DNA of 64,000 bases, from positions 1 to 64,000 of the IMG/VR virus record IMGVR_UViG_3300050821_013777; one strand, 5' to 3'. Of this stretch, positions 23,507 to 39,860 are shown in pieces. The DNA comes from a virus. The translations under genes and the position numbers were made by a program. The notes under the pieces were generated by a model. That model ran no database searches, was not told the DNA's origin, and saw only the letters and a list, made by a program, of their open reading frames with translations. Each line of letters begins with the position of its first letter. Positions within the stretch are counted from its first letter, which is position 1.

Positions 23507-24814
23507 ATGAGCCGACAGATCGTCGAGGTCGAACGCATTGAGGGATTCGCTGAGATTCAACTGCCCGAGTCGGCCCGCTTCGTCTTTGCAGCACCAGGAC
23601 GAGGCGGGCCGAAGTTGTGTCAGATCCGCGCCGCGCTGGCGCCGCGCGGGCGCCTGCGGCTATCAGGGACAGCCGGGCGCATCTTTGCTGACTTCGATCC
23701 GGGGCCGCCTACAGAGCCGCTGATCGCGCTCGACACAATCGCACGTAGCGACGCTGCAGGCTTGGAGCGCATGCTGCTGTCGGCGCTCCCGCACGTGGAT
23801 GAAATCGTGCTCGGAGTCGATGAGCGGAGCGACACGGCCACGGTGGAGGTGGCGCAGATGTACGCGGATAGCTTCTACATCTTCGCGGCGAGCGACGTCG
23901 GGCTCACTGAGGAGGAGTGGGCTGCGGACAAGATCCACTTCGCGAATGCACGGAATCTCGGCCGGGAGCGCGTTCAGTCGCCGTGGACCCTGGTCGTGGA
24001 TGCCGACGAATACGTGGGCCAAGCAGCTGATCTGCGTGAGGCCGTGGCCAAGTATCCAGACGCCGAGCACCTCGAATCAACGATCTTCTGTGGGGGTGTC
24101 AGAGTCGACTCCGATCGACAGCGTCTTGCCCGCACGTTGCTGCGCTGGACCGCGCCATCCCACAACCAACTCATGGTCAAGACCGGCGTCGGCTACAAGA
24201 CCGAGCTGCATATCATCGAGGACAAGAAGCTCCGGACTGCGACGGAGAACGCACGCCGGGATGCTCAGCGCAGCGAAGGAATCGAGCTGCTCGTCGACGA
24301 AGCTGGCAAGGGCAACATCTCAGCGCTGCTCCATCTCGCGAAGCACCGCGCTGGCCTTGGTGACACCGTGGAGGCTGTGCGCCTCGTGGAGGACTATCGC
24401 CTGCGCATCGAGCCCCATAGCGTGCTTGCCGACGAGCGTGCGATCACTGCGCTCACGCTGGGCTTTCGCTTCTACTACGAGGACGATCTTGCCCAGGCAG
24501 AGGTGTGGGCGCTGCGCGCGCTGCTCGACGGCCCTCGTGTCGCGGCGTTCTGCCTGCTTGGCGACATTGCAGAGGAGCAGTGCGATCTGCCGCGGGCTCG
24601 GGGATGGTACGAGGCGGCCTGTTCGATCACGACACCGGAGAGGGTCGATTGGCCGGGCGTTACGGAGATGCGCTGGGGACGACTCGACGGGATCAAGCTG
24701 GCGATTCTGGATCCAACAACTGCGCCGGTGGCGTACATCACCACCGTGCCGGAGACTACTTCGTCCCCTCCCAGTCCCGAAACTCATAATGGAGACCCAT
24801 CGCCAACGCCTTGA
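23507..24814 (+). CDS. GT2 glycosyltransferase with TPR-like domain
   Basis: 435 residues. Residues 70-200 are GT-A like: LLSALPHVDEIVLGVDERS, then FANARNLGRERVQSPWTLVVDADEYVG with a DADE metal motif. Residues 290-370 are TPR-like (AEVWALRALLDGP, CLLGDIAEEQCDLPRARGWYEAAC), homologous to the middle of 17086. The C-terminus is Pro/Ser/Thr-rich. Preceded by a leaderless-type promoter. Confidence 0.7.
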   Translation: MSRQIVEVERIEGFAEIQLPESARFVFAAPGRGGPKLCQIRAALAPRGRLRLSGTAGRIFADFDPGPPTEPLIALDTIARSDAAGLERMLLSALPHVDEIVLGVDERSDTATVEVAQMYADSFYIFAASDVGLTEEEWAADKIHFANARNLGRERVQSPWTLVVDADEYVGQAADLREAVAKYPDAEHLESTIFCGGVRVDSDRQRLARTLLRWTAPSHNQLMVKTGVGYKTELHIIEDKKLRTATENARRDAQRSEGIELLVDEAGKGNISALLHLAKHRAGLGDTVEAVRLVEDYRLRIEPHSVLADERAITALTLGFRFYYEDDLAQAEVWALRALLDGPRVAAFCLLGDIAEEQCDLPRARGWYEAACSITTPERVDWPGVTEMRWGRLDGIKLAILDPTTAPVAYITTVPETTSSPPSPETHNGDPSPTP

Positions 24815-24965
24815 CCGCGACTAAGAAGGCCGTCAGCCAGGCGGCCTCGACGCCGATCACAGCTGCAGCGTCGGTGACAGGCGACTCGTAGTAGTCCCAG
24901 GCCGTTCCTGCGCCGCTCTCGATGCGCTGCCAGACGGATGGTGGCGAGTCTGCCACCGAGATCAT
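24756..24965 (-). CDS. small membrane protein, structural region
   Basis: 69 residues with one hydrophobic segment (AAWLTAFLVAVKALAMGL). Last gene of the leftward structural operon; its end overlaps the convergent glycosyltransferase by 59 bases. Confidence 0.5.
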   Translation of the reverse strand: MISVADSPPSVWQRIESGAGTAWDYYESPVTDAAAVIGVEAAWLTAFLVAVKALAMGLHYEFRDWEGTK

Positions 24966-25450
24966 CTCCTGGACGGTGAGAGCAGAAGAATGAGCACGAG
25001 ACCGCCGAACACGGCGCCACCGATCATCAGCGTCTTCTTTTTGACCTTCATCCCGCCAGGCAGCTTCACCATTGCACCGCCGCCTCTTCCTCCGCCTCCG
25101 CCGCCAGCCGCGTCGCCGCCATCGTCACCACTGGCATCTCCGCTGCTGTCGTCCTGCGCTGCACCTCCTCCACTGGGGGCAGGTGCGGGTCGCGGCGCTG
25201 GCCCAGGTCCACCCGGACTGCTGGTAACTGTGCTGAGCCCAGCTTGGACGAGAGAGCCGCTCCCTGGCGCGTAGGCGTTCGCCGCACTAGCGGCTGCCTG
25301 CTGCGCGAGCTTGCTCCGCAGGACAGCCTTGTCGATGCGATAGATGCCTTTCGCCCCTGCCTTGACGCCGTGGCTTGTCGCAACGACAGCCTTCTTGACG
25401 TAGTGAAGCGGGTTCAGCGAGAACCCGAGCGGCGCAGCCTGGATGATCAT
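24962..25450 (-). CDS. membrane-anchored virion protein candidate, PLGFS family
   Basis: 162 residues. The N-terminus IIQAAPLGFSLNPLHYV matches 26272-26676 (ITTASPLGFSITNAF). A helical region precedes a Pro/Ala and Gly/Asp low-complexity linker, and one C-terminal helix (TLMIGGAVFGGLVLILLL) with a basic tail. The topology (head, linker, C-terminal anchor) recurs through the structural region. Confidence 0.6.
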   Translation of the reverse strand: MIIQAAPLGFSLNPLHYVKKAVVATSHGVKAGAKGIYRIDKAVLRSKLAQQAAASAANAYAPGSGSLVQAGLSTVTSSPGGPGPAPRPAPAPSGGGAAQDDSSGDASGDDGGDAAGGGGGGRGGGAMVKLPGGMKVKKKTLMIGGAVFGGLVLILLLSPSRR

Positions 25451-25464
25451 CTCGCGAGCGCCCC

Positions 25465-25548
25465 CTACTTGGCGACTTTGATTCCGAGAACGAGCGCAGA
25501 CCCTGCGAGCAGCGCGCCGAACAGAATCGGCAGATATCCCTTACCCAT
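25465..25548 (-). CDS. 27-residue membrane peptide
   Basis: Read directly: ATG at 25548 after GGGAGAAAGTC, TAG at 25465. Single helix LPILFGALLAGSALVLGI with basic ends. Short membrane peptides of this kind are common in membrane-containing virions. Confidence 0.55.
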   Translation of the reverse strand: MGKGYLPILFGALLAGSALVLGIKVAK

Positions 25549-25567
25549 GTGACTTTCTCCCTTCGCC

Positions 25568-26275
25568 CTAGTCGGGCTTCTTGGCGGCCGGTTTCTTCTT
25601 GTGCATGAGCATATACCCGCCCACGCCCGCGATGCCGATCAACCCGACGAACAGCAGCAGATGATGAGGCTTGTGCCCCGCGTGCTCTTCACCGCCGTGA
25701 CCACCACCGCCGCCTCCACCGTCGTCCCCACCGCCGCCTCCACCGTCATCTCCGCCTCCGCCGCCGTCAGCAGCGTCCTGATGCGGCGTCAGGTCGACAG
25801 CGGGCGAAGCTGGCGAGACGCTCGGGGCCGGCTGCGGCATGTTCTGGACCATGGCGGGTGGCTGCTGAGCAGCCTGTTGCTGTTGCGCAGCGATCTGCTG
25901 TGCCTGCTGCGCCTGGTAGAGCTGCTGCTGCAGGAACTGAAGTCGCGCCGCTGCCGCCTGGTCGTGTGCGGCGATCCGCTCCAAGCGGAAGTGCTCGCGA
26001 TCCCAGTTCGATTGCGCCACCCGCGCGCGCTCGATCGCACCACGATCGGGACGCACGATCGTGTTGTAGTAGTTGCGCGTGACCGTCGGGCCCGGAATGA
26101 ACCGCGTGGGACCGGGCCTGTAGACTGTGCGAACCGGCCCAGGCGTGTAGCGGTTGACGACCCGTGGCGGCTGCACAACGACTGCGCGAGGTGCAGGCAT
26201 CGCCGGACGTACTGGAGCAACAACAGGATGGAAAGCAGCGGCTCGGGAAGGCTGACCGAAGTACATGGCATTCAC
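25568..26275 (-). CDS. membrane-anchored virion protein candidate
   Basis: 235 residues. Pro/Arg/Val-rich N-terminus, a Gln/Ala-rich coiled coil (about 95-140), a Gly/Asp/His linker, and one C-terminal helix (LLLFVGLIGIAGVGGYMLM) followed by Lys-rich residues. Could be a stalk or tape-like protein projecting from a membrane. GTG at 26275 by overlap, or ATG at 26266. Confidence 0.6.
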   Translation of the reverse strand: MNAMYFGQPSRAAAFHPVVAPVRPAMPAPRAVVVQPPRVVNRYTPGPVRTVYRPGPTRFIPGPTVTRNYYNTIVRPDRGAIERARVAQSNWDREHFRLERIAAHDQAAAARLQFLQQQLYQAQQAQQIAAQQQQAAQQPPAMVQNMPQPAPSVSPASPAVDLTPHQDAADGGGGGDDGGGGGGDDGGGGGGGHGGEEHAGHKPHHLLLFVGLIGIAGVGGYMLMHKKKPAAKKPD

Positions 26276-26676
26276 CTTTTCAAGAGGAGGAGCAGGAACA
26301 GAAACCCAACGCCGACTCCGGCGTAGACAAGCATGTGACTGTTCTCGACAGGCAGCTGCGCGCCAGGAGCTTCACTGTCGTCACCAGGCGGCGGTGTGTT
26401 GTCCGGCACCAGGATGGCACCCGGCGGCGGGGCTTGCCCCGGCTGCACCATGATTACCCGGCCCTGGTCCATGAAGCGACGGGCCTTACGAATCTGGCGC
26501 TGCACTTGATGCGTGTACTGCATCACCTGCGAGGTAGCATCGGGGGCGTACGCCTGCGCTCCGGCAGCGACGAGTGCCTGCGCGCGCGGGTCGCTGGCGA
26601 CAGCGACCGCGTCGTGTGCGACGGTCCTGAACGCGTTCGTGATCGAGAAGCCCAGAGGCGATGCAGTAGTGATCAC
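26272..26676 (-). CDS. membrane-anchored virion protein candidate, PLGFS family
   Basis: 134 residues. Starts V-ITTASPLGFSITNAF and ends with one helix (MLVYAGVGVGFLFLLLLL) plus KR. Paralog of 24962-25450 by N-terminus and layout. GTG at 26676 chosen because the TACAGT -10 lies 7 bases upstream; a longer frame would place the promoter inside the gene. Confidence 0.6.
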   Translation of the reverse strand: MITTASPLGFSITNAFRTVAHDAVAVASDPRAQALVAAGAQAYAPDATSQVMQYTHQVQRQIRKARRFMDQGRVIMVQPGQAPPPGAILVPDNTPPPGDDSEAPGAQLPVENSHMLVYAGVGVGFLFLLLLLKR

Positions 26677-26683
26677 GAGAGAT

Positions 26684-26713
26684 ACTGTACGGGGCACGGG
26701 CCGGGGGCGTCAA
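26684..26713 (-). promoter_or_regulatory. leftward leaderless promoter, structural operon
   Basis: Minus strand: TTGACG at 26708-26713, 18 bp, TACAGT at 26684-26689, then 7 bases to GTG at 26676. Divergent from the promoter at 26735. Confidence 0.65.
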
Positions 26714-26734
26714 ATTGGCTGGCGGACCGGCGAT

Positions 26735-26764
26735 TTGCAGGCGAGGGGCACAGACAGGTATCCT
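26735..26764 (+). promoter_or_regulatory. rightward leaderless promoter, structural operon
   Basis: TTGCAG, 18 bp, TATCCT, then 9 bases to the ATG at 26774. The two divergent -35 elements are 21 bp apart, so the operons may be co-regulated. Confidence 0.6.
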
Positions 26765-26773
26765 GGTGAGAAG

Positions 26774-27778
26774 ATGCGATTCGGCGCTGTCGCTCCGCTG
26801 CTACGAGCACACCAAGTGACCACGCTCGCGGATCGTGTGGTGCTGCTGCGAAAGCTGGTCTGGTTCGGCGCGACGGCGTTCGATCCGCACGAGCCCCCTG
26901 TTGGGAGCTTGCAGGACCCGAACATGCGCCAGATCGGCTTGGAGATCACGCAGCCGTGCCGCGGACGCGACGACATGTGCGAGCTGCATTCGATCTACTG
27001 GTTCACCAAGAACAACACGCGCTACACCGGCGACATCACCTTCAAGGACACGTTCCAGAGCGCGTGGCGGACGCTGCAGTACGGCGGCGGGGACTGTCTG
27101 CCGCTATCGACGCTAGTCCTGTGCTTGAACAGGAAGCGCGCAGAAGGCACGTTCGTGCCGCTGAGTGAGATCGAAGAAGGTGATCTCATCATGGCCGATG
27201 GCGACTGGACGCGTGTGGAGAAGAGCTGGTTCACGGGACGGAAGCCGATACTCGCGTTCGAGCTGAGCAACGCAACAGTGCTGCGATGCTCGCCCGAGCA
27301 CAGGCTGCTCACGCTTGATGGTCACGAACGGCGCGCGGCGCATGTCGAGGTCGGCGAGCATCTGCTCACGCCGCGACGCGAGATTTCGCTCGGGTATGGC
27401 AGCATCATCCCGGTGTCGCCTGGTGGTGCACGCGTCGTCGCGATCCGCCGTGAGCCAGGCGCGCAGCTGTGCATGGACATCACCACCGAAGCCGGGCATT
27501 TCTGGCTACCGGAGTCAGACACGCTCGTCCACAACTGTGATGACCATGCTGTCCAAAACGCCGTGCTCGCAATGGTGAACGGGTTCGAGACGCGCTTTCG
27601 CATTACGAGCAACACCGGGTCGAGCTGGGACCACATCTACCTGCAGGCTGGCGTCCCGAAGACACAGCCGCGCCGTTGGGTCACGCTCGACACGACGCTG
27701 CCCGGCCGCGACCGATTTGACGTGCAGCCCCCATTCGCGAAGAAAGAAGACTTCCCCGTGACGGAGCCCCGGCGATGA
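26774..27778 (+). CDS. transglutaminase-like protein interrupted by a mini-intein
   Basis: 334 residues before splicing. Extein halves join as GGGD|CDDHA, the GDCDD motif of transglutaminase-like cysteine peptidases. WDHIYLQA and WVTLDTTLP supply the expected His and Asp. The intein (27095-27535) sits exactly before the catalytic Cys. The spliced protein is about 187 residues. Located in the structural operon, so a virion-associated peptidase, cross-linking or cell-wall role is possible. Confidence 0.75.
   Translation: MRFGAVAPLLRAHQVTTLADRVVLLRKLVWFGATAFDPHEPPVGSLQDPNMRQIGLEITQPCRGRDDMCELHSIYWFTKNNTRYTGDITFKDTFQSAWRTLQYGGGDCLPLSTLVLCLNRKRAEGTFVPLSEIEEGDLIMADGDWTRVEKSWFTGRKPILAFELSNATVLRCSPEHRLLTLDGHERRAAHVEVGEHLLTPRREISLGYGSIIPVSPGGARVVAIRREPGAQLCMDITTEAGHFWLPESDTLVHNCDDHAVQNAVLAMVNGFETRFRITSNTGSSWDHIYLQAGVPKTQPRRWVTLDTTLPGRDRFDVQPPFAKKEDFPVTEPRR
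27095..27535 (+). mobile_element. 147-residue mini-intein
   Basis: Starts with Cys (CLPLSTLVLC, block A). Block B is LRCSPEHRLLTLDG with the conserved His. Block F is MDITTEAGHFWL. It ends VHN before Cys+1. No homing-endonuclease domain fits in 147 residues. The frame is intact through both junctions and all splicing residues (Cys1, block-B His, terminal Asn, Cys+1) are present. Confidence 0.85.
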
Positions 27779-27954
27779 AAAGAGAAGGCAGGTGCGTGCT
27801 GCTGAGCCCTGCGCTGATCGCGAAGCTCCAGGTTCCATACGGCGCGGGAAAAGGCGCGTGGAGCGTCACATACCTGGATCGTTCGGGGCGTCGACAAGGC
27901 AGTGGCGTCGAGAAGCTAGGACGGAAGCCAGCATACGTGCGGTGCCCGCGATGA
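27775..27954 (+). CDS. small basic protein, unknown
   Basis: 59 residues from ATG 27775, overlapping both neighbours. Basic and beta-rich (AWSVTYLDRSGRRQG), single Cys near each end. Function unknown. Confidence 0.5.
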   Translation: MKREGRCVLLSPALIAKLQVPYGAGKGAWSVTYLDRSGRRQGSGVEKLGRKPAYVRCPR

Positions 27955-28166
27955 GCGACGGCAACACGCGTACGCTCTCGTTCCCGAACGGCGGGACGAT
28001 GGAGATCCCACTGCCGGGGTCGAAGGCCCGCTTCGCGATGAAGCCAGGATCGATTCTCTCCGACTCGCCGGCCTGCCCGACGCGCGCCACGCTCATCGCA
28101 GGCGTGGTGCTCGGCGTCGCGCTCGGTGTCGGCGTCACCGCCTGGTACGTGAGCCGTCACCGATGA
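27951..28166 (+). CDS. small C-terminally anchored membrane protein
   Basis: 71 residues: polar N-terminus (NTRTLSFPNGGTMEIPLPG), then one C-terminal helix (LIAGVVLGVALGVGVTAWYV) and SRHR. Same layout as other structural-region membrane proteins. Confidence 0.6.
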   Translation: MSDGNTRTLSFPNGGTMEIPLPGSKARFAMKPGSILSDSPACPTRATLIAGVVLGVALGVGVTAWYVSRHR

Positions 28167-28378
28167 CGGGTGGACAGTTTCCACCGATGTCGATTCCGGT
28201 CGCGCCACCGGCGCAGGCACCGTCGAGCATCGCAGTGACGTGGGCAATGTTGGGGAAGTACGTTTCGCAGCTCGCGGCAGCGCATGCGCACGCGGACGTC
28301 ACGATCATCATGAAGGGCGGCAAGGTGGAGTTGATTCGCGTTACCCAGACGTGTTTGCCGAGCCAACTGCCACGGTAG
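28163..28378 (+). CDS. small protein, unknown
   Basis: 71 residues. Pro/Ala-rich N-terminus, then a helix-strand unit (LAAAHAHADVTIIMKGGKVELI). Member of the structural operon by overlap. Confidence 0.5.
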   Translation: MTGGQFPPMSIPVAPPAQAPSSIAVTWAMLGKYVSQLAAAHAHADVTIIMKGGKVELIRVTQTCLPSQLPR

Positions 28379-28384
28379 TAGGAT
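28355..28384 (+). promoter_or_regulatory. leaderless promoter inside the operon
   Basis: TTGCCG, 18 bp, TAGGAT, then GGCAAC and the GTG at 28391. Lies over the end of the preceding gene, giving an internal start for downstream structural genes. Confidence 0.6.
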
Positions 28385-28390
28385 GGCAAC

Positions 28391-29248
28391 GTGATCACGC
28401 AAGCCATCGGTGCTGGCAGCATCTTTCCGAGCCGCAGAACGTGCTTCTGGCAGGAGCAGATCGACGGCCTCGAAGCTCAGCTCTGTGACGACGGCGAGGT
28501 CACCTTGTGGCGCGACGACCAGCATAACGTCTGGTTGCCGAGTGAGCCGCCACCGGCGCGCTGGAAGAAGGCTTTTCGTCACCACAACCCATCGACCGCG
28601 CTTCTTGGTGCTGGTCCGCTGCCGGGCATCTGCACGCCGCACAAGGCAGTACCACTCACGAAGATTCGTCGGCTGCAGAACGCGCTGCGCGGGCTCGCGA
28701 CACGATCGAGGGATGGATCGCTTCGCGTTGTCGCCGACGGGCTCATCGGTTCGCGAACGGTCGCGGCTGTCAACCGCGCGATGGTCACCTACGTGGGAAC
28801 GCCCCACACGCTGGCTACGGGGAATCTCACGCACGCCCAGGTCTCTGCGTTCGCACCGCAACTCACTGCTTCCATCGATCAGGCTCCGCGCCAGGCAGCC
28901 TCGCCGGCAGCTTCACAGGCGCCCGCCTCGTCGATGCCGCCACCCGTGACAACCCCGTGGCCTTCGCCATCACCGCAAGGAGCGCCGTCCATGCCCGCGT
29001 ACTACCCAGACGATCCCCAATACTACCCGCCACCGCGTCCTGCGTACTATCAGTCGGCGCCGACCTACTACGGGCCGACGCGCGCACCGGGTGGACTGCC
29101 AGCGGATCACGCGTCACTCGACGTGAAGGCGTTCGTGCCTGCGCAGTACGAGCACATTCGCGTGAACCCGACCACGGCGATGCTGCTGGTCGGGTTCAGC
29201 GTCCTGGCTGTGCTGTTCGTCCTCGACAAGAAAAAGAAAGCGAGCTGA
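28391..29248 (+). CDS. peptidoglycan-binding-like, membrane-anchored virion protein
   Basis: 285 residues, GTG start. Residues 75-150 (LTKIRRLQNALRG, DGLIGSRTVAAVNRAM) resemble a PG_binding_1 repeat. A Pro/Ala/Tyr-rich linker with YYP repeats (about 165-235) follows, then a C-terminal helix (AMLLVGFSVLAVLFVL) and KKKKAS. Likely a virion protein contacting the cell wall during entry. Confidence 0.6.
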   Translation: MITQAIGAGSIFPSRRTCFWQEQIDGLEAQLCDDGEVTLWRDDQHNVWLPSEPPPARWKKAFRHHNPSTALLGAGPLPGICTPHKAVPLTKIRRLQNALRGLATRSRDGSLRVVADGLIGSRTVAAVNRAMVTYVGTPHTLATGNLTHAQVSAFAPQLTASIDQAPRQAASPAASQAPASSMPPPVTTPWPSPSPQGAPSMPAYYPDDPQYYPPPRPAYYQSAPTYYGPTRAPGGLPADHASLDVKAFVPAQYEHIRVNPTTAMLLVGFSVLAVLFVLDKKKKAS

Positions 29249-29251
29249 GCC

Positions 29252-29710: not shown

Positions 29711-29941
29711 GTGGCCCGCAAGATCAAAGGTGCCTTCTGTGAGCGGGAGATGCTCCCGAAGAGTGCCTTTGACCGGCGGAGCTTTCGCTGGAAGAAGAAC
29801 GGTCGCAGCTGGGTGATGGTCGGGTGCCGGCGCGGGAAGTTCAAGCGCGGTCGCTGCTCGAACGGACTTCGGGCACACGTGATCTTGGTGAAGTCGACCG
29901 GCTCGTGCCCGATGGGCGGCCGGCTGATTCAGAAGGGGTGA
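29711..29941 (+). CDS. small basic Cys-containing protein
   Basis: 76 residues, GTG start immediately after the previous stop. Very basic with four Cys (FCERE, VGCRRGKFKRGRC, GSCPMGG); may bind nucleic acid inside the virion. Confidence 0.5.
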   Translation: MARKIKGAFCEREMLPKSAFDRRSFRWKKNGRSWVMVGCRRGKFKRGRCSNGLRAHVILVKSTGSCPMGGRLIQKG

Positions 29942-29945
29942 AGAG

Positions 29946-30836: not shown

Positions 30837-31099
30837 CAGGCGGCGCTCCGTGCGAGCTGAGACGCAGCGAAGAGCACATCTCGCGATTCCTTGCTGACGT
30901 CGCGCGACCACGTGAGCCCCTCGTCTTCGTAGTCCCAGACCGGAGGTATGTTGAAACCCTTCGTGGCGATCGAGAAGCAGCGGCGCCCGCCCAGACACGA
31001 CGGGTTCAGCACCTCGACACCGACGACCCCGAACTGCATCGCCACGGCGACAAGCTGTCCCTGTTCGAGCAGGACTGCAGCCGGAGCCTTGTTGGCCAT
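30836..31099 (-). CDS. EGxxW-family protein with shared tail
   Basis: 87 residues: beta-rich N-terminus (GQLVAVAMQFGVVGVEVL), DYEDEGLTWSRDVSKESRDV, tail LFAASQLARSAA. The only family member in the structural region. ATG overlap with the next gene. Confidence 0.65.
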   Translation of the reverse strand: MANKAPAAVLLEQGQLVAVAMQFGVVGVEVLNPSCLGGRRCFSIATKGFNIPPVWDYEDEGLTWSRDVSKESRDVLFAASQLARSAA

Positions 31100-31350
31100 C
31101 AGCGGTCCCTGCTCTGTTGCACGATATATGTGAGCCCGCCGACGAGCAGGAAGATGCCGCTGTTCACGATGTACGCGGCGGCATCCTTCACCGTGTCGTG
31201 CTCGCCGTCCATGAGCGCTCGCACAGCGAGCCCGGCGACGAAGCCCGCAGCGCTGCCGATGGTCGCTGGCACCATGAAGTCGGACAGGCGGACCGGGCGC
31301 GCGCCGGCCAGGAGATGCTGCCGGCGCGGTGGATAGTAGTGGGCGTGCAT
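31099..31350 (-). CDS. membrane protein, structural region
   Basis: 83 residues, two hydrophobic helices (VPATIGSAAGFVAGLAV and AAAYIVNSGIFLLVGGLTYIV), His/Arg-rich N-terminus. Confidence 0.55.
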   Translation of the reverse strand: MHAHYYPPRRQHLLAGARPVRLSDFMVPATIGSAAGFVAGLAVRALMDGEHDTVKDAAAYIVNSGIFLLVGGLTYIVQQSRDR

Positions 31351-31996: not shown

Positions 31997-32668
31997 ATGC
32001 TGACGCAGAACGGACCCGGCGGACGCGGCTCCATCCCTGCGCTCGTGATGCGCACGGGTCTCATTCAACCGGTCGACCCGGCGAACGCGCGCCGCGACGT
32101 CCAAGCGAACCACGTGCGCGATGTGACCCACTGGCCGACCGATCAGATTCCCTCGCCCGACGGCATGGATTCGCTGCCACCGGCGATGCCGATGTCGACC
32201 GCGCCACAGATGACGCCGATCCCGGCGCCGTACAGCCCGCTGACGACTGCAGTCGCGCAGACCGTCGCGGCCGTGCCGCCGCAGCCGATCACCAACCTCT
32301 CGCCCGGCCCGATGCCACGACGGGAGAGCGACCGGCACCACTGGCATCACCAGCATCGGCACGTGCACCCGATGGTCGCCGACATCCAGCGGCTGCATCC
32401 CGGCGCGCGCTTGCACGGCGCCGACGACATCCTGCTCGGTGAGTGGAACGGCAAGCCGGTGGCGAAGTTCGAGATCGCTGCCTCGCCGCCCGCGAACGGT
32501 GCACAGGGCGCCATCTACGCGCTCCGCGACGCCGCCCGCCATCTCGTGCAGAGCGGGCTCGCAGCGCTGCCGCCGGAGCTTGTCGGTGGTCCGCTCGCGG
32601 CGCTCATGCGCGGCGGCGCCGTCGAGCTGCATTTTCAGAATGGGGTTGTCGCTCGAACGGCGCTCTGA
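31997..32668 (+). CDS. probable virion protein, His/Pro-rich
   Basis: 223 residues. Residues 50-110 are Pro/Met-rich, then an HHWHHQHRHVHP cluster (about 114-125), then an alpha/beta C-terminal domain (IYALRDAARHLVQSGLAAL). Shine-Dalgarno AGGAG in a C/A-rich leader. First gene after sRNA copy 2, near the major capsid candidates. Confidence 0.5.
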   Translation: MLTQNGPGGRGSIPALVMRTGLIQPVDPANARRDVQANHVRDVTHWPTDQIPSPDGMDSLPPAMPMSTAPQMTPIPAPYSPLTTAVAQTVAAVPPQPITNLSPGPMPRRESDRHHWHHQHRHVHPMVADIQRLHPGARLHGADDILLGEWNGKPVAKFEIAASPPANGAQGAIYALRDAARHLVQSGLAALPPELVGGPLAALMRGGAVELHFQNGVVARTAL

Positions 32669-32865: not shown

Positions 32866-33402
32866 ATGGCTCGACACAGGTTCCGCGGGTTCGGTGACGG
32901 CGGGGGAAATCCCGCCATCGCTGGTCCGCTCATCGGCGGCGGTGCCACGCAGATCGGCATCATGCTCGCTCACCTGCACGCGAAGAAGAATCCGGCGGCT
33001 CTCCGGCACTCGGGGATTCACGGGCTCGTCCTCGGCGGTCTCGTGGGCGGCGCGCTGGCGTTCACCCACAAGCATCGGCAGACGGGCATCAGCGCGCTCG
33101 TCACCGTCGGCATCATCACGCTGCCCCGCATCCTGGAGGGCTTCATGGGCCTCGGTCATCGCGACGAGACCATGAAAGGCTACGAGCTGGGGATCATCAC
33201 GCCCCAGGCGTACGAGGCTCTCTCGGGCGCAGGCGACGAGGCCGCTGTCCAGATCATGGACTCGGGCTCGGGCTCGACCGGAATGCTCGGAACGCACGTC
33301 GCGGAGGAAATCCATCCGATGGCGGGCGCGGGCGGCGCGGGCGAGTACGTCGAGATGCTCGGCAGCTCGGGCTTCGGCTCGAACTTCCTCAGCGCGCAGT
33401 AG
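32866..33402 (+). CDS. membrane virion protein candidate
   Basis: 178 residues. Gly-rich N-terminus and two hydrophobic stretches (LIGGGATQIGIMLAHL, GLVLGGLVGGALAF), then a polar C-terminal half. C/A-rich leader with AAGGAAC. Directly upstream of the major capsid candidate. Confidence 0.55.
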   Translation: MARHRFRGFGDGGGNPAIAGPLIGGGATQIGIMLAHLHAKKNPAALRHSGIHGLVLGGLVGGALAFTHKHRQTGISALVTVGIITLPRILEGFMGLGHRDETMKGYELGIITPQAYEALSGAGDEAAVQIMDSGSGSTGMLGTHVAEEIHPMAGAGGAGEYVEMLGSSGFGSNFLSAQ

Positions 33403-33513: not shown

Positions 33514-33528
33514 GAAGGAACAACTCAG

Positions 33529-34314
33529 ATGGCAAATACCGGCACACTGACTGTGCGAGTTCGGGGGGTTCCGTTCCCCATCGAGTTCGCGGACTGGACC
33601 CACGACCGCCTCTACGCCACCGTCGAGTTCGAAGGAACCGACAGCCAGGTGATCCAGGCGTTCATCGGCGCGCAGGGCGCCACGATCCCGGGCGGCGCGC
33701 GCACGCTGACCTCGGTGGACACCAACATCCCGCGCTCGGGTGACACCGGGTTGCAGGAGGGTTGGGAGATGCTGATCTACAGCATCCAGATCCAGATCGA
33801 CCGCGAGATGGCGCGCAATGCGTCCCAGCAGTTCTTCCAGCTGCAGGACCAGACCAACGTGGGCGGCGCGACGCAGTTCAGCCGCAACGTCCACCTCGGG
33901 GGCTACGACCCCAGCAACACCGCGGGCGGCGTGCTCTTCGACTTCCTCCGGAAGACCTACCACAAGTTCCAGGTCAACCAGAAGGTCCAGTCGGAGGGCC
34001 CGGTGTCCAAGTACCCGCAGGGGTCGGGCATCTCGGTCTTCGGCACCACGACGAACCTGGAGAACGCGAACAACGGCTTGCCGTCGCCGCGTGACCAGTC
34101 GGCGTTCGTGCTGCCGATCTGGCTCCGCCCGAACATCGCGTACGTGGCGCTCCTCGCGCCACAGGCGACGCTCGGCATCGGCGGCGCCTCGGTCGCGTCG
34201 GGCCCGCCGTTCCCGACGGTCGAGGGCTACTTCGACTGGTCGTCGATCCCGGCGACCAACATCGGGTTCGACGTGAAGGAGACCTTGGAGGGTCAGGAAG
34301 GCCCCCTCAACTAG
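33529..34314 (+). CDS. major capsid protein candidate
   Basis: 261 residues. Beta-rich throughout (GTLTVRVRGVPFPIEF, YATVEFEGTDSQVIQAF, SQQFFQLQDQTNVGGA). No membrane helix, and a strong Shine-Dalgarno after a leader hairpin. Flanked by membrane virion candidates and followed by a group I intron and a strong terminator, as expected for a highly expressed gene. Size suits the larger of two single jelly-roll capsid proteins (P23-77 VP17-like). No sequence match recognised. Confidence 0.5.
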   Translation: MANTGTLTVRVRGVPFPIEFADWTHDRLYATVEFEGTDSQVIQAFIGAQGATIPGGARTLTSVDTNIPRSGDTGLQEGWEMLIYSIQIQIDREMARNASQQFFQLQDQTNVGGATQFSRNVHLGGYDPSNTAGGVLFDFLRKTYHKFQVNQKVQSEGPVSKYPQGSGISVFGTTTNLENANNGLPSPRDQSAFVLPIWLRPNIAYVALLAPQATLGIGGASVASGPPFPTVEGYFDWSSIPATNIGFDVKETLEGQEGPLN

Positions 34315-34632: not shown

Positions 34633-34657
34633 AACTAGGCTCGATCCGAACGACAAG

Positions 34658-34693
34658 AAAACCCCCGACGCTCGAAAGAGTGTCGGGGGTTTT
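34658..34693. terminator. strong bidirectional terminator
   Basis: AAAACCCCCGACGCTC, loop GAAA, GAGTGTCGGGGGTTTT: a 16-bp stem with A/T tracts on both sides. Serves the capsid operon from the left and the convergent endonuclease gene from the right. Confidence 0.85.
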
Positions 34694-34698
34694 CTCTT

Positions 34699-36009
34699 TT
34701 ACAGCCCATTCATCCCAGGTGGATACGGGACGCCTTTTTTACCGAACAGTTCGGGGTGCTCTTCTTGTAGATGTCGTGCGAGTTGTACGGCGTGCTTGTA
34801 GCGTCTCCACCCAGCGACGATCGCGACGCCTTGCTCAGTCAGCTGGCCGTTCTTCAGCAGACCCCAGCGGCCGAACGCACCTACTGGCGCGCGTACTCCT
34901 CGATCTACTTCGTCAAGACGTTCAGCACGCTCGCCGAACGCGAGAAGTAGTCGAACGCGGTTCATGGAGTGGACGAAGGCCCTTGCGTCGAGGAGCTGCA
35001 GCATCTCTCCGGCGCGCAGTGTGATGTGCGTGCCTTCATCAGTGTTTCGATGGTAGCTGCCTGCCTCGAAGGTCCAGCCGAACGCCTCAGCGAGCGCACG
35101 CTTGACAACTCGGTGCTCAGCGGCGTGCCCTGCGAGACGCAAGTCCTTGCTATTCTTTCCGTCTACGAACGCCCCGTCCCCGTCTAGCCATCCGAGCGCG
35201 AATTCTCGTGCAGCGTCGGGTGAAGGGAACGGCGCAGCGAAGATCTGCGCAAGCGCGACGCGCGCTATCCGCAGCAGCGGGCTCGACTTCCGCACGTGAA
35301 TGATGCCAGCATTTTCGCCTCGTCCAGGTGCGCGAGCGCGCTCGGCTACAATCTCGACGCCAAGAGCCTCATACTTCTGGCGCGCGTGCACAGCAGGTTC
35401 GTCCCAGGCGTGCAGCACCTCCAGCGAAAGTCGTGATCGGGGCAGCCCCCACTGGGCGAGCAAATCAATCGCGTGAGCCAGCAGTAGTGGGTTCGTGTTC
35501 GCAAAGGTGAAGTCGACGGCCTCTTGCCCCTTCGTTCCCTCAGCCTGCCAGAGACCTAGCACACGATAGACGGCCAGTGGTGGCGGAACACGGGTCAGCT
35601 CGAACGGCGGCTCGTGCTGGTTCCAGATCGACAGGGCCCCCCCTGCACCATCGACGGGAAAGTAGCTCTCGTGCGTGACATGTGGCAGCCAGTCGAAAGC
35701 ACTGTCTGCTCGGGGCCGCGCAGCGTACGGCTCGGCGCTCTCCGCCTCGACGTGCAGTACGGTGCCGCGCTCGATCCCCGGCGCGCAGTATCGCGGCAGC
35801 GTGACATCGACGGACGCCCGCGACGGCGGCCGGCGGGCGTACGCGAAGAATGGCGTGCTGCTGTTCACACGCAGACGCAGCCACCCTGGCGCCTGAAACG
35901 TCCCATCGAGCGTCCTGTATTCAGCGGGTATTGTCATGCAAGGCGACGTCCCCGTACCAACATTCGCTTTCTTTCCCTGGAAATACGCGACGACGCTGAA
36001 CTTGACCAT
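34699..36009 (-). CDS. LAGLIDADG homing endonuclease
   Basis: 436 residues. Two LAGLIDADG helices: VLGLWQAEGT (about 150-159) and ALGWLDGDGAF (271-281), each with the acidic catalytic residue, plus intervening beta regions. The first 140 residues are extra and unrecognised. The gene lies next to, but outside and antisense to, the group I intron, so it may mobilise itself or the intron. A TAAACT -10 lies 9 bases before the ATG. Confidence 0.75.
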   Translation of the reverse strand: MVKFSVVAYFQGKKANVGTGTSPCMTIPAEYRTLDGTFQAPGWLRLRVNSSTPFFAYARRPPSRASVDVTLPRYCAPGIERGTVLHVEAESAEPYAARPRADSAFDWLPHVTHESYFPVDGAGGALSIWNQHEPPFELTRVPPPLAVYRVLGLWQAEGTKGQEAVDFTFANTNPLLLAHAIDLLAQWGLPRSRLSLEVLHAWDEPAVHARQKYEALGVEIVAERARAPGRGENAGIIHVRKSSPLLRIARVALAQIFAAPFPSPDAAREFALGWLDGDGAFVDGKNSKDLRLAGHAAEHRVVKRALAEAFGWTFEAGSYHRNTDEGTHITLRAGEMLQLLDARAFVHSMNRVRLLLAFGERAERLDEVDRGVRAPVGAFGRWGLLKNGQLTEQGVAIVAGWRRYKHAVQLARHLQEEHPELFGKKGVPYPPGMNGL

Positions 36010-36092
36010 TTGAAGGTAAGTTTAGCACCGCCGTCAATCGCCCGTCTGTGGTCGATTACACGAAGCTGGCTTTCCGGAGCAGTCGGGCCAGT

Positions 36093-36122
36093 TTGCCTTC
36101 CACCCCGCACCCGTCCTATCAT
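36093..36122 (+). promoter_or_regulatory. leaderless promoter for second capsid candidate
   Basis: TTGCCT, 18 bp, TATCAT, then 8 bases to ATG 36131. Confidence 0.65.
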
Positions 36123-36130
36123 CGCTTTCT

Positions 36131-36625
36131 ATGAGCGTCGGCGACATCTCTCCTGGTCTCGAAGCGATGATGGTCCAGCTCGGGCCGTGGATTCACCACA
36201 TCAAGGCGGCCCTCGATCCGCTGCTCGGGCAGCCGATCATCCGCATGCCCTATTCGCTGCCGCTCGCGCAGGCGCAGGTCATCCCGCCGGGTGGACAGAA
36301 CGTCGTGCTCAACTCGACGTCGTTCACCTTCAACCTCGAATGGCCGATGGAAGTGCACGAGGTGAAGTTCTCGCAGGACATCGCGCACACCTACCGCGAC
36401 TGGCAGGTGTACATCCAGGATCAGACGTTCAACCAGCCGCTGCAGAAGAACGCGTCGTCGGTGGCCGATCTCGTCGACGACAACACCGGCAAGTGGGTCT
36501 GGCGGTTTCCCTGGACGATTCGTCCGAAGGGTGGCGCGATGAACGTGGCCGTGAACAACCTCGACACGGTGAACCCGATCACCGTCGACATGTCGTTCCT
36601 CGGCTTCCTGATGATCCCACGGTAG
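36131..36625 (+). CDS. minor capsid protein candidate, jelly-roll like
   Basis: 164 residues, strongly beta (NVVLNSTSFTFNLEW, GAMNVAVNNLDTVNPITV, MSFLGFLMI) with few charges. The size equals the smaller capsid protein of P23-77-type viruses (about 170). Followed by structural and transglycosylase genes. Functional assignment is by size, composition and context only. Confidence 0.5.
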   Translation: MSVGDISPGLEAMMVQLGPWIHHIKAALDPLLGQPIIRMPYSLPLAQAQVIPPGGQNVVLNSTSFTFNLEWPMEVHEVKFSQDIAHTYRDWQVYIQDQTFNQPLQKNASSVADLVDDNTGKWVWRFPWTIRPKGGAMNVAVNNLDTVNPITVDMSFLGFLMIPR

Positions 36626-36630
36626 TCGCG

Positions 36631-37092
36631 ATGGCCGAAGGCCGTTCATTCTCTGAGCTGGCAGGCAGTGGGGTCCTTGGCGGCCCGCGCGCGGGCTCGC
36701 GCTCGACACCGAACCAGGTCCCCACACCGAACTCCGAGCCGCTCGGCGCGAAGACGGGTGCACCGCCACGCGTGCGCTTCTACTCGACGAAGATCATCCC
36801 ATTTACTGCGATCGGCGTGCGGGGCGCTGAGCCGACGCAGATCATTCCGCCGACGCCGCCAAATCGTCTCATCACGCTGACCGCACCGTTCGTCGGGTTC
36901 ACGATCTACATCGGCGACTCGGGCGTCTCTCCTACCACTGGACTGGCACTGCCGCCGGGCCGTGACTATCAGGCGCAGCTGGTCGGTCTGCAGGAACTGT
37001 ACGCTGTGACGGACGCACCCATCTATATGACGCTGCAGATTCAAGTGTCGCCGATCCTGTTCGCGGAGCGTGAGCGAAAGACCGAGCTGTAG
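36631..37092 (+). CDS. probable virion protein, beta-rich
   Basis: 153 residues. Gly/Ser/Pro-rich N-terminus (about 45 residues), then beta strands (LITLTAPFVGFTIYIGDSG, IYMTLQIQVSPILF). Follows the 36131 capsid candidate by five bases. Possibly a vertex or cement protein. Confidence 0.5.
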   Translation: MAEGRSFSELAGSGVLGGPRAGSRSTPNQVPTPNSEPLGAKTGAPPRVRFYSTKIIPFTAIGVRGAEPTQIIPPTPPNRLITLTAPFVGFTIYIGDSGVSPTTGLALPPGRDYQAQLVGLQELYAVTDAPIYMTLQIQVSPILFAERERKTEL

Positions 37093-37104
37093 GAGCGCAC
37101 GCAG

Positions 37105-37692
37105 GTGATCCCCCTGGCGTTGCTCGCGATGACGGGACTGATCGTCGCGGCCTACAAACTGACGAACGACCACAATCTCGCGCGCATCGCTGCTGGCACA
37201 GGGCTGCCGCTGCAGTACGTACAGTTCGCGGCGAAGGCAGCCCACGCGAATGGGGTGCCGCTCGAATGGGTCCTGGCGACGATCATCGTCGAGTCGAAGG
37301 GAAACCCTCGTGCTCGCGGCGACGCTGGCGGAAAATCTGTAGGATTGATGCAGGTCAACGTCGTGGCGAACGCAAAGGTTCTGGCGAACGCGGGTGTGAC
37401 TTCCACACAGATGTTCGATCCGGCTACGAATATCCGCATCGGCACACAACTACTCGCCGGGTTCAAACAGCGCGTACTTGATGCGCTCGTCGGCCACGCA
37501 CCGTCGCTACCACTCGACGAGTTGACTCGCCTCGAATACAAGGGGCCAAAGTCCATCGAAGGTGCCATCCGAAGTGGCAGGAACCCGCTCACGGCGTATC
37601 CTGACGCGCCACAGGCCGTTACGCGTTGGCGAGAGGCGCTTGCGACGGTCCGAGCAGCAGCTGGACCGCAGACGATTCGCGTCTTCTCGTAG
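37105..37692 (+). CDS. membrane-anchored lytic transglycosylase
   Basis: 195 residues, GTG start. N-terminal helix (PLALLAMTGLIVAAY), then an SLT-like domain: WVLATIIVESKGNP with the catalytic Glu, KSVGLMQVN, and FDPATNIRIGTQLLAGF. In a virion operon it most likely opens peptidoglycan during genome entry, as in PRD1-type phages, rather than at lysis. Confidence 0.75.
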   Translation: MIPLALLAMTGLIVAAYKLTNDHNLARIAAGTGLPLQYVQFAAKAAHANGVPLEWVLATIIVESKGNPRARGDAGGKSVGLMQVNVVANAKVLANAGVTSTQMFDPATNIRIGTQLLAGFKQRVLDALVGHAPSLPLDELTRLEYKGPKSIEGAIRSGRNPLTAYPDAPQAVTRWREALATVRAAAGPQTIRVFS

Positions 37693-37702
37693 AGGGGTCG
37701 CG

Positions 37703-37844
37703 GCTCCGGCGGCGCATCGCGTGTACCGCCGGAGCTACTGTTTCCCCGCGGTACTGTCTTCTGCCACTTCTTCGAGTGGTGGCAGTCTCCGGGGCGACGA
37801 TTTGAGCGCGGCCGAGACGTAGACTACCACGGCCGGGCGCTTTT
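37703..37844 (+). terminator. hairpin-rich non-coding segment ending in a terminator
   Basis: The 189 bases between genes 37693 and 37881 hold three stems: GCTCCGGCGG/CCGCCGGAGC (37703-37735), CTGCCAC/GTGGCAG (about 37764-37790), and GCGCGGCCG/CGGCCGGGCGC followed by TTTT (to 37844). It separates the transglycosylase gene from the promoter at 37843. A small RNA here is possible but no second promoter is evident. Confidence 0.5.
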
Positions 37845-37872
37845 GACCCCGGCTGCCCCCCTGGTGTAGCCT
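37843..37872 (+). promoter_or_regulatory. leaderless promoter for the 37882 operon
   Basis: TTGACC, 18 bp, TAGCCT, 9 bases to ATG 37882. The -35 begins in the terminator T-run. Confidence 0.65.
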
Positions 37873-37881
37873 GATCGCACG

Positions 37882-38349
37882 ATGATCGTCCGCACGTACG
37901 TGGTCAAGATGCCGACTGCCGTGTCCACGGTGCCGCTGGACATCCTGGTGCAGAACAACCCTGGCTCGCAGTCCGCACCTGTCGTGGCTGGCAGCGACGG
38001 CGCCTACTACGAGGTGCTCGGCCGCCCGTTTCGCATCCCCGTGCTCGCATCTGCAGGGCAGGCCGGTGGCTTCGTCTCGCCACTGCGTCTCGGCTTCTCG
38101 ATCGCGATCACTCCATACGCGGCGGCCATCTCGGCAGCTGTGCCGGGCGCGCAGCTCTCAGCGTCGCTCGCGAGCTTGTCGAGCACGGATGCAGGTCCGT
38201 CGATCGCGCTACCCGCGTTTCCTGATCCGGCTGGCGGCCCGTCGCTGCGCCTCGTGGGTGGCATCGCGACGGCAGGATTGTTCTTCATCGTGTCGCTGTT
38301 CGTGGCCGAAGCCAAAGACGCTGATCGATCGGGGACGTCGGGGAGCTGA
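37882..38349 (+). CDS. membrane-anchored virion protein candidate
   Basis: 155 residues. Beta-rich N-terminal domain (VRTYVVKMPTAVSTVPLDIL), Ser/Ala linker, and one helix near the C-terminus (GGIATAGLFFIVSLFVAEA). Stop overlaps the next ATG. Confidence 0.55.
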   Translation: MIVRTYVVKMPTAVSTVPLDILVQNNPGSQSAPVVAGSDGAYYEVLGRPFRIPVLASAGQAGGFVSPLRLGFSIAITPYAAAISAAVPGAQLSASLASLSSTDAGPSIALPAFPDPAGGPSLRLVGGIATAGLFFIVSLFVAEAKDADRSGTSGS

Positions 38350-38798
38350 TGATCTCCTCGAACCTCGGCGCCGGCTACGCGCTCGTCACGTACCCTCCGG
38401 ACTGGAACCCGAACGAGGGGGGCGGCCCAGTTCGCCGCGCGCCTGGCTCGAACGTCGAGGTCGCGCACGCCGGCAACACCGTGTACCGCACGCCGAACAC
38501 GAACGTCATCGAGGCAGAGCCCGGCGCGCGCTGGCCGGGTGACCTCTCGAAGATGATGTTCCTGCCCGACGGCCGTCTCGTACCGGCGACGGCCGCTGCC
38601 TACGATATGTTCCGCGGCGCAGATGATCCGTTCGTACGTGGCAAGTTCAGTGTGAAGGTCAAGCGCTCGATCGGCGCGAGCGTGGTGGCGATCGTCGGCG
38701 CCGGCTTCGGTGCGGCGCTGGCGCCCAGCGACCGACGCGTGGCGGGCACGGTGGTGGGTGCAGTCGCCGGAGGAATCCTCGGGCTGATCTTCGGGTAG
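38349..38798 (+). CDS. membrane-anchored virion protein candidate
   Basis: 149 residues. Polar head with repeated Asn/Pro/Gly, then a Gly/Ala-rich C-terminal hydrophobic region (SVVAIVGAGFGAALA, GTVVGAVAGGILGLIF), likely one hairpin or two helices. Confidence 0.55.
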   Translation: MISSNLGAGYALVTYPPDWNPNEGGGPVRRAPGSNVEVAHAGNTVYRTPNTNVIEAEPGARWPGDLSKMMFLPDGRLVPATAAAYDMFRGADDPFVRGKFSVKVKRSIGASVVAIVGAGFGAALAPSDRRVAGTVVGAVAGGILGLIFG

Positions 38799-38802
38799 AG
38801 CG

Positions 38803-38973
38803 ATGGTCACGCTCGCGCGCCCCCTCGGTTCATTCTCCGCCGACGCCAGGACCGCAGTCCAACAGGCGCCAGGGTACTTCATGGCCTGGTACACGGTGAA
38901 GTCGGTTGGCCTCTGTGTCGCCGTCGCAGCGCTGGCGTTCGTGATCGGGAGAGCAGGACGCAAATGTTCCTAG
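38803..38973 (+). CDS. 56-residue single-helix membrane protein
   Basis: ATG 38803 to TAG 38971, overlapping the next gene by 10 bases. Polar N-terminus, helix SVGLCVAVAALAFVIG, basic end (RAGRKCS). Confidence 0.55.
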   Translation: MVTLARPLGSFSADARTAVQQAPGYFMAWYTVKSVGLCVAVAALAFVIGRAGRKCS

Positions 38974-39668
38974 ACGACGCCGGCCGCCAGCTCATGGCCG
39001 AGCGTAACGGCGAGCACGCGAACGCCAGCGTGCAGCTTCTCGGGCCTCCGAAGCCCACCGGTGCCGATGCACAGCAGGCGGCCGCACTGCTCGCGCCGAT
39101 GCAGACGAACCGCCAGGCGCGGATGGTGCTCGGCGTCGTCGCGCAGTACCTGCAGCAGGGCTACCAGACCGCAGCGACCGTGCCATCGTTTATCTCGCCG
39201 ATCGACGGCACGTCCATCGCGTCGAAGGCGATGATCTCGCTGCTCGACACGGACAACCGCTACGCGATGCGCGTCTACGCTGGGCTGCCGGACAACGACG
39301 CGCCGGTGAGCCCGCTCGATCGCAAGAAGGTTGCGCTGGCCGTGACACAGGCGCTGTCGAGCACAAAGCTCGTGAGCACTGAGGCGGCCGATCTGAACCG
39401 CGGGCTCGTCGGTTCGCTGATCGATCTGTTCAAAGAGGGGCTGCAGAAGCTCGCGACTGACGCGGCCCACAACCCGCTCGCGGCGCTCAAGTGGGCCGGC
39501 GTTGGGCTGGCGGTGCTCATCGGGCTCTTCATCGCTGGCAAGCTCGTGCACACGATCGCGTTCGGCGGCGCTGGGCACGGTGGAGAGGCCGATGCGCTGC
39601 TCGAAGCTGAGGAGGCGGCCGTGGCCATCATGGGTGCCAGGTTGCGCAAGCCCCGCCGCAAGCGTTAG
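38964..39668 (+). CDS. membrane-anchored virion protein candidate
   Basis: 234 residues. Helical, Ala/Gln-rich N-terminal two thirds, one strong helix (WAGVGLAVLIGLFIAGKLV, about 172-190), then an acidic helix and RKPRRKR end. Typical of the group. Confidence 0.6.
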   Translation: MFLDDAGRQLMAERNGEHANASVQLLGPPKPTGADAQQAAALLAPMQTNRQARMVLGVVAQYLQQGYQTAATVPSFISPIDGTSIASKAMISLLDTDNRYAMRVYAGLPDNDAPVSPLDRKKVALAVTQALSSTKLVSTEAADLNRGLVGSLIDLFKEGLQKLATDAAHNPLAALKWAGVGLAVLIGLFIAGKLVHTIAFGGAGHGGEADALLEAEEAAVAIMGARLRKPRRKR

Positions 39669-39671
39669 AAT
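39642..39671 (+). promoter_or_regulatory. leaderless promoter for 39678
   Basis: TTGCGC, 18 bp, TAGAAT, TCTGGC, ATG. The end of the preceding gene supplies both elements. Confidence 0.6.
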
Positions 39672-39677
39672 TCTGGC

Positions 39678-39860
39678 ATGATCGGTCAAGCACCACCCCC
39701 CAAGAGCAACGCGGGCCTCGCAGCGGCCATCTTCGGCGGCTTGGCAGCGGTCGGCGGCATCGCGGCGGCGGCCTACGTGTCGCGGCCGAAGCCCGCGACG
39801 GGCCCGAAGCTGAGCGGGCCGCGGTTCAAGCAGAAGAAGCCCTGCGGCTGCGGGCGCTGA
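39678..39860 (+). CDS. 60-residue membrane protein
   Basis: Single helix (LAAAIFGGLAAVGGIAAAAYV), then Pro/Lys-rich tail ending KKPCGCGR. Confidence 0.55.
   Translation: MIGQAPPPKSNAGLAAAIFGGLAAVGGIAAAAYVSRPKPATGPKLSGPRFKQKKPCGCGR

What the first reader, a model, noticed from the sequence alone, without database searches (positions are those of the whole stretch)
24756..39860. Structural region built of membrane-anchored proteins: possible large tailless, membrane-containing phage
At least ten proteins here have one or two transmembrane helices, usually at the C-terminus after a Pro/Gly linker and followed by Lys/Arg (24962, 25465, 25568, 26272, 27951, 28391, 37882, 38349, 38803, 38964, 39678). 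They are interleaved with small beta-rich proteins, a membrane-anchored transglycosylase and a tiny basic peptide. No portal, terminase, tape-measure, sheath or baseplate gene is seen in 64 kb. Known membrane-containing tailless phages have genomes of about 10-20 kb, so this would be far larger. The packaging ATPase should lie outside the window if this is right.
Basis: inference. Interest (0 to 1): 0.85.

Follow-up and report, generated by a model that had tools for sequence, protein, structure and literature searches.

The report
Possible large tailless membrane-containing phage group
This is part of a bacterial virus whose virion genes look like those of tailless phages with an internal membrane, but whose relatives have complete genomes of about 90-103 kb, more than twice the largest such phage known to me (44 kb); the capsid protein's fold still has to be shown.

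Summary
Observation confirmed. 24756-39860 is strongly enriched in proteins with a C-terminal membrane anchor (12 of 32 against 9 of 189 elsewhere in the record, p=1e-6). The window is the first 64 kb of a 121.5-kb virus record. Seven relatives share the virion module; four (89-103 kb) close on themselves and are taken as complete. In all eight, three terminase and two portal models find nothing, while tailed controls are hit by PF03237, PF04466 and PF05133. The 261-aa protein at 33529 is the best conserved (61-88%) even where replication genes are unrelated: the likely major capsid protein. A 29-42-aa Lys/Arg-rich peptide lies just upstream of it in all eight. Clusters of anchored proteins like this occur in the proven tailless membrane phages SSIP-1 and P23-77, not in three tailed controls. 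Not shown: the capsid fold (both AlphaFold2 runs failed, pLDDT 30 or less) and the packaging motor. A HerA-like ATPase occurs in five records, is missing from one complete genome, and its nearest relative is an accessory gene of a tailed phage. Best reading: a new group of large, tailless, membrane-containing phages, without detectable relatives in sequence; probable (0.72), not proven.

The parts
33529..34314 (+). 261-aa candidate major capsid protein, strand-biased composition, no known relative
   Evidence: in all 8 records at 61-88% identity, the best conserved protein; no match in PHROGs, Pfam, PDB, phage or plasmid records; composition
32866..33402 (+). 178-aa Gly-rich hydrophobic protein directly upstream of the capsid candidate; probable membrane/assembly protein
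   Evidence: in all 8 records, 39-74% identity
32707..32817 (+). 36-aa Lys/Arg-rich peptide, probable DNA-condensing virion peptide
   Evidence: at the same place in all 8 records, 29-42 aa, 41-53% K/R, mostly with CR(F/Y)G...CLK
31997..32668 (+). 223-aa Pro-rich conserved protein of the capsid block
   Evidence: in all 8 records
36131..36625 (+). 164-aa protein with strand-biased composition, candidate second (small) capsid protein
   Evidence: in all 8 records, 51-62% identity; no detectable homology to 33529
36631..37092 (+). 153-aa probable virion protein
   Evidence: in all 8 records
37105..37692 (+). 195-aa SLT transglycosylase with N-terminal TM helix
   Evidence: Pfam SLT 3.5e-13; TM 1-19; in all 8 records
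37882..38349 (+). 155-aa protein, hydrophobic C-terminal part
   Evidence: in all 8 records
38349..38798 (+). 149-aa protein with two C-terminal TM helices
   Evidence: in 7 of 8 records
38803..38973 (+). 56-aa TM protein
38964..39668 (+). 234-aa protein, TM 172-190, basic tail
39678..39860 (+). 60-aa TM protein, basic Cys-containing tail
24756..24956 (-). 66-aa TM protein
24962..25450 (-). 162-aa C-terminally anchored protein with Gly/Pro linker
25465..25548 (-). 27-aa hydrophobic peptide
25568..26176 (-). 202-aa C-terminally anchored protein with Gly-rich linker
26272..26676 (-). 134-aa C-terminally anchored protein
26816..27778 (+). transglutaminase-like protein split by a mini-intein
   Evidence: Pfam Transglut_core and Intein_splicing; in all records but G004; similar domain in SSIP-1 structural protein gp34
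27951..28166 (+). 71-aa C-terminally anchored protein
28391..29248 (+). 285-aa C-terminally anchored protein; related to 79785-80345(-), which has a weak peptidoglycan-binding match
   Evidence: G007 homologue PG_binding_3 6.4e-18
31099..31350 (-). 83-aa protein with two TM helices
58499..58981 (-). 160-aa protein in all 8 records, next to the 36131 homologue in G002 and G005

Best explanation
24756-39860 is the virion-assembly module of a large dsDNA phage of a previously undescribed group (complete relatives 89-103 kb; this one probably about 130 kb) that most likely makes a tailless icosahedral particle with an internal lipid membrane. Proposed working, inferred unless marked. 33529 (large) and 36131 (small) build the shell. 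32866 and about ten C-terminally anchored proteins fill the membrane under it, their Gly/Pro linkers reaching towards capsid or vertices. The conserved Lys/Arg-rich peptide 32707 neutralises and condenses the DNA. Long collagen-like proteins (66674-72748, 65105-66640 of the record) form receptor-binding spikes. At entry the membrane-anchored transglycosylase 37105 (domain shown), the peptidoglycan-binding anchored proteins and the transglutaminase-like protein 26816 (domain shown) open the cell wall so that the membrane can deliver the DNA. The packaging motor is not identified. Shown: the module, its conservation, the membrane segments, the enzyme domains, and the absence of detectable terminase and portal. 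Not shown: capsid fold, membrane, particle shape.
For: Enrichment of C-terminal anchors, p=1e-6. Seven relatives with the same module; G002, G003 and G005 have exact 127-bp and G007 76-bp terminal direct repeats, i.e. assemblies that close. TerL_ATPase, Terminase_6N, Terminase_3, Phage_portal and SPP1_portal: 0 of 8 over cut-off; tailed controls hit by PF03237 (MW202482), PF04466 (Mx8) and PF05133 (MW202482). In complete G003 the only classical Walker-A proteins are a Dda-type helicase and a MoxR ATPase. 33529 keeps 61-70% identity in G004, G006 and G007, where the DNA polymerase is 25% identical or has no match. Basic peptide at the same place in 8 of 8. Most C-terminally anchored proteins in 30 consecutive genes: 4-11 here, 8 in SSIP-1, 5 in P23-77, 1-2 in tailed MW202482, Mx8 and phiCbK. 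SSIP-1 gp34 (structural) combines a related transglutaminase-like domain with a C-terminal anchor. Composition of 33529 and 36131 is strand-biased, like P23-77 VP16/VP17 (weak).
Against: Capsid fold undetermined: both AlphaFold2 runs failed, and profiles find no relative in PDB, Pfam or PHROGs. hhalign shows no similarity of 33529 or 36131 to P23-77 VP17 or VP16, nor to each other, though such proteins are often undetectable by sequence. No packaging ATPase common to all members; the HerA-like one is absent from complete G003 and closest to an accessory gene of a tailed phage. Transglutaminase-like peptidases also occur in tailed phages (phiCbK gp041). Collagen-like proteins are annotated as tail fibres in tailed phages. 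No particle has been seen; only three tailed genomes served as anchor controls.
Confidence: 0.72

Rival explanations
1. A tailed phage whose capsid, portal, terminase and tail proteins have diverged beyond detection by sequence profiles.
For: 33529 matches nothing known, so its fold is open; the HK97-capsid and tape-measure Pfam models also miss tailed controls, so their silence says little; collagen-like fibre proteins and a weak tape-measure match in G007 (E=0.033) exist.
Against: Terminase and portal models hit tailed controls but none of 8 records; complete G003 has no unexplained Walker-A protein of terminase size; the longest proteins of the complete genomes are collagen/fibre-like, polymerases, helicases and glycosyltransferases; anchored-protein clusters of this density were not seen in three tailed phages.
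Confidence: 0.14
2. A membrane virus without an icosahedral shell (pleomorphic or spindle-shaped), with 33529 as another abundant virion protein.
For: Many anchored proteins; no packaging ATPase common to all members; a MoxR AAA+ plus VWA pair in six records (such a pair in a spindle-shaped archaeal virus is recalled from memory, untested).
Against: 33529 is large, soluble-looking, without a TM segment, and far better conserved than all anchored proteins, as expected of a symmetric shell.
Confidence: 0.1
3. Not a virion module: a plasmid-like or integrative element with a membrane apparatus.
For: A tyrosine recombinase is conserved in 7 of 8 records, and no particle is known.
Against: GH25 endolysin, SLT enzyme, collagen-like fibre proteins and a phage-type replication set; no match in plasmid records for 33529 and none found by pattern scans of cellular genomes.
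Confidence: 0.04

Closest known systems
[quoted passage not shown]
   Same: A cluster of small proteins ending in Gly/Pro linker, TM helix and Lys (gp34, gp36, gp41, gp42, gp52, gp54); a structural protein with a transglutaminase-like domain; no terminase annotated.
   Different: Less than half the genome size; no detectable homology of 33529, 36131 or the other tested module families; SSIP-1 carries an annotated structural ATPase (gp40) in its structural cluster.
Thermus phage P23-77 (Matshushitaviridae), two single-jelly-roll capsid proteins
   Same: Pair of a small (173 aa) and a large (291 aa) capsid protein against 164 and 261 aa here, similar composition; transglycosylase; anchored proteins.
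   Different: 17 kb; packaging ATPase inside the capsid cluster; no sequence similarity found.
Double-jelly-roll tailless phages (PRD1/Tectiviridae, PM2, Autolykiviridae)
   Same: Membrane-anchored virion proteins and cell-wall enzymes on the virion (general knowledge; PRD1 membrane entry described in PMC6356626).
   Different: Genomes of about 7-18 kb (PMC5894146), most prominently with a packaging ATPase; no capsid relationship found.
Portogloboviridae (archaeal SPV1)
   Same: Shell proteins over a membrane and DNA held in a protein-bound condensed core (PMC8459092); a possible parallel to the basic peptide here.
   Different: Archaeal hosts, 20 kb; no sequence relation tested or claimed.

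Membership tests
Caudoviricetes (tailed phages) | Terminase large subunit | tested here: not met
   PF03354, PF03237, PF04466: 0 of 8 over cut-off; one sub-threshold match in G006, E=0.01; controls hit by PF03237 (MW202482) and PF04466 (Mx8). Four of the eight taken as complete.
Caudoviricetes (tailed phages) | Portal protein | tested here: not met
   PF04860 and PF05133: 0 of 8; tailed control detected at 3e-27 by PF05133.
Caudoviricetes (tailed phages) | HK97-fold major capsid protein | tested here: inconclusive
   PF05065 finds nothing here but also misses the tailed control; AlphaFold2 failed.
Caudoviricetes (tailed phages) | Tail tape-measure protein | tested here: inconclusive
   PF10145 finds nothing, but misses all three tailed controls as well; weak match of a coiled-coil protein in G007, E=0.033.
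Single-jelly-roll tailless viruses (Matshushitaviridae, Sphaerolipoviridae, SSIP-1) | Two vertical single-jelly-roll capsid proteins | tested here: inconclusive
   Two conserved proteins of fitting size and composition, but no fold model and no sequence similarity.
Single-jelly-roll tailless viruses (Matshushitaviridae, Sphaerolipoviridae, SSIP-1) | FtsK/HerA-type packaging ATPase | tested here: inconclusive
   HerA-like ATPase in 5 of 8 (PF01935 over cut-off in 4; phrog_2666, which contains the P23-77 ATPase, 2.5e-13 to 8.9e-20) but far from the capsid genes, absent from complete G003, and closer to an accessory HerA of a tailed phage.
Tailless membrane-containing phages in general | Set of virion membrane proteins encoded with the capsid protein | tested here: met
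   Sequence level only: p=1e-6 enrichment and match to SSIP-1 and P23-77 density.
Tailless membrane-containing phages in general | Lipid in the particle, no tail | not testable with these tools
   Needs particles: microscopy, chloroform, lipid analysis.

The most novel reading that the evidence does not exclude
A new high-rank lineage of bacterial viruses: tailless, membrane-containing, about 90-130 kb, with a capsid protein unrelated in sequence to any known one, and with no dedicated packaging ATPase in at least one complete member, so that the shell may assemble around DNA condensed by a tiny arginine-rich peptide instead of being filled by a motor.
Probability: 0.2. Interest if true: 0.95.

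Novelty: new variant of a known kind. Interest (0 to 1): 0.8.

Why it matters
Prokaryotic tailless membrane phages described so far are small: about 7-18 kb for the double-jelly-roll groups, 44 kb for SSIP-1. A group with complete genomes of 89-103 kb that carries its own DNA polymerase and helicases would show that prokaryotes also host large membrane viruses without tails, and would bear on how such virions scale up. It would also mean that tools which expect terminase and portal overlook such viruses in metagenomes. The shared module (33529, 36131, 32866, 32707) gives search markers for them.

Tried and rejected
AlphaFold2 on 33529 alone (pLDDT 28) and with eight sequences (pLDDT 30): no usable fold, so no fold search was run. 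Profile searches in PDB for five virion families: nothing meaningful. Scans of GTDB genomes for a host-borne copy: none. Phage and plasmid records: no match to 33529, and none to 36131 in phage records. HerA-like ATPase as the packaging motor: considered and not adopted. 33529 and 36131 as paralogues: not supported by hhalign. phrog_2 as a terminase test: dropped, because it rings in almost all control genomes and its identity is not given. HK97-capsid and tape-measure Pfam models: not informative, they miss the tailed controls. My gene caller failed on lower-GC record G004; its content was read by tblastn and six-frame search instead.
Full report
What was given. The window is bases 1-64000 of a 121,543-bp virus record. 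I fetched the remainder and called genes on all of it (221 proteins).

In 24756-39860, 15 of 32 proteins have a predicted TM segment against 20 of 189 elsewhere (p=5e-6), and 12 of 32 against 9 of 189 have it at the C-terminus (p=1.4e-6); shuffling the same proteins gives 2.3 on average, at most 7. The usual form is a Gly/Pro-rich linker, a helix, then Lys/Arg.

Relatives. Searches with 33529 found six further IMG/VR records and a search with 36131 a seventh. I read them in pieces. G002 (94,503 bp), G003 (89,081) and G005 (102,927) begin and end with the same 127 bp, and G007 (96,328) with the same 76 bp: such overlaps are what an assembler leaves on a closed genome, so I treat these four as complete. 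The record under study has no such repeat and ends inside a HerA-like gene; conserved neighbours of that gene in the relatives (a 300-400-aa gene and a 600-730-aa coiled-coil gene among them) are missing from it. Compared with G005, some 10 kb are missing, so about 130 kb is likely (inference).

What is conserved. Two blocks recur: A = 31997, basic peptide, 32866, 33529; and B = 36131, 36631, 37105, 37882, 38349, 38964. In G002 and G005, block B lies elsewhere and inverted relative to A. 33529 is the best conserved protein, 82-88% in four relatives and still 61-70% in G004, G006 and G007, where the DNA polymerase is 25% identical or has no match. A structural core kept while replication genes are exchanged is the behaviour of a capsid protein (inference). 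A 29-42-aa peptide with 41-53% Lys/Arg lies about 0.7-0.9 kb upstream of 33529 in all eight; only one to three ORFs of that kind exist per genome.

Tailed or not. Profiles for the terminase (PF03354, PF03237, PF04466) and portal (PF04860, PF05133) find nothing over cut-off in the eight records; tailed MW202482 and Mx8 serve as positive controls for PF03237, PF05133 and PF04466. In complete G003 the only classical Walker-A proteins are a Dda-type helicase and a MoxR ATPase. The longest proteins of the complete genomes are collagen/fibre-like, polymerases, helicases, primases and glycosyltransferases. HK97-capsid and tape-measure models proved uninformative, because they also miss the tailed controls.

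Comparison with proven tailless phages. SSIP-1, a membrane-containing icosahedral phage with two capsid protein types (PMC6356626), has the same kind of genes: gp34, gp36, gp41, gp42, gp52 and gp54 end in linker, helix and Lys, and its structural gp34 carries a transglutaminase-like domain related to that of 26816 (single-sequence search with the intein-free homologue of G007, E=8.7e-13). The maximum of C-terminally anchored proteins in 30 consecutive genes is 4-11 in this group, 8 in SSIP-1, 5 in P23-77 and 1-2 in tailed MW202482, Mx8 and phiCbK. Transglutaminase-like peptidases alone are not diagnostic: tailed phiCbK has one.

What failed. No profile of the module matches PDB, Pfam or PHROGs, apart from the enzyme domains and the intein. 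Composition of 33529 and 36131 is strand-biased and resembles P23-77 VP16/VP17 more than three tailed-phage capsid proteins, which is weak evidence.

The packaging ATPase. A HerA-like ATPase (DUF87 over cut-off in four records) occurs in G001, G002, G005 and G007 and is cut off at the end of the present record. It matches phrog_2666, a family that also contains the P23-77 packaging ATPase. But complete G003 lacks it, and its nearest relative is an accessory 'hera helicase' of a tailed podovirus that also has terminase, portal and tape measure (profile E-value 4e-93 against 1e-5 for the P23-77 ATPase). So the motor is unidentified.

Mechanism, as I think most likely. Shell of 33529 and 36131 over a protein-rich membrane; DNA condensed with the basic peptide; collagen-like spikes for attachment; wall opening at entry by the anchored transglycosylase and peptidoglycan-binding anchored proteins; membrane-driven DNA delivery as in PRD1. 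Only the domains and the conservation are shown; the rest is inference.

Novelty. Known double-jelly-roll tailless elements are 7-18 kb (PMC5894146) and SSIP-1 is 43.8 kb. I found no description of a larger bacterial one in the papers held, which do not cover most subscription journals. I rate it a new variant of a known kind, with a real chance of being more.

Noticed in passing
26816-27778: Mini-intein inside the active-site motif (GGGD / CDDHA) of a transglutaminase-like protein; intein also in G003, a larger protein in G005, none in G007.
   Followed up: partly
34699-36009 (-): Probable LAGLIDADG-type homing endonuclease (from sequence only; no PDB match) between 33529 and 36131; relatives near the capsid gene in G002 and G004.
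   Followed up: partly
L004:13640-15418 (-) (record 116640-118418): IS605 OrfB/TnpB-like protein (Pfam HTH_OrfB_IS605 and Cas12f1-like TNB among the record's hits).
   Followed up: no
21215-21526 (+): 103-aa protein that looks like the source of the SET-domain match (5.6e-7) in the window; assignment inferred from its sequence.
   Followed up: no
8415-10972 (-): MoxR-type AAA+ ATPase (closest PDB entry Midasin) next to a VWA/metallopeptidase protein, conserved in six of the eight records.
   Followed up: partly
59034-60751, 17086-24814, record 72919-76313: DegT aminotransferase, hexapeptide acyltransferase and several glycosyltransferases: a sugar-modification set.
   Followed up: no
L002:2674-8748 (-) (record 66674-72748): 2024-aa collagen-like protein, probable spike or fibre, beside a second collagen-like protein of 511 aa.
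   Followed up: partly
15295-15783 (+): Lipoprotein with GGSAGG-type repeats of a style I associate with Myxococcota: a possible hint at the host.
   Followed up: no
3287-3538, 42511-45808, record 112825-113590 and others: A loose family of small proteins with 37 members in five records, ten of them in this one.
   Followed up: no
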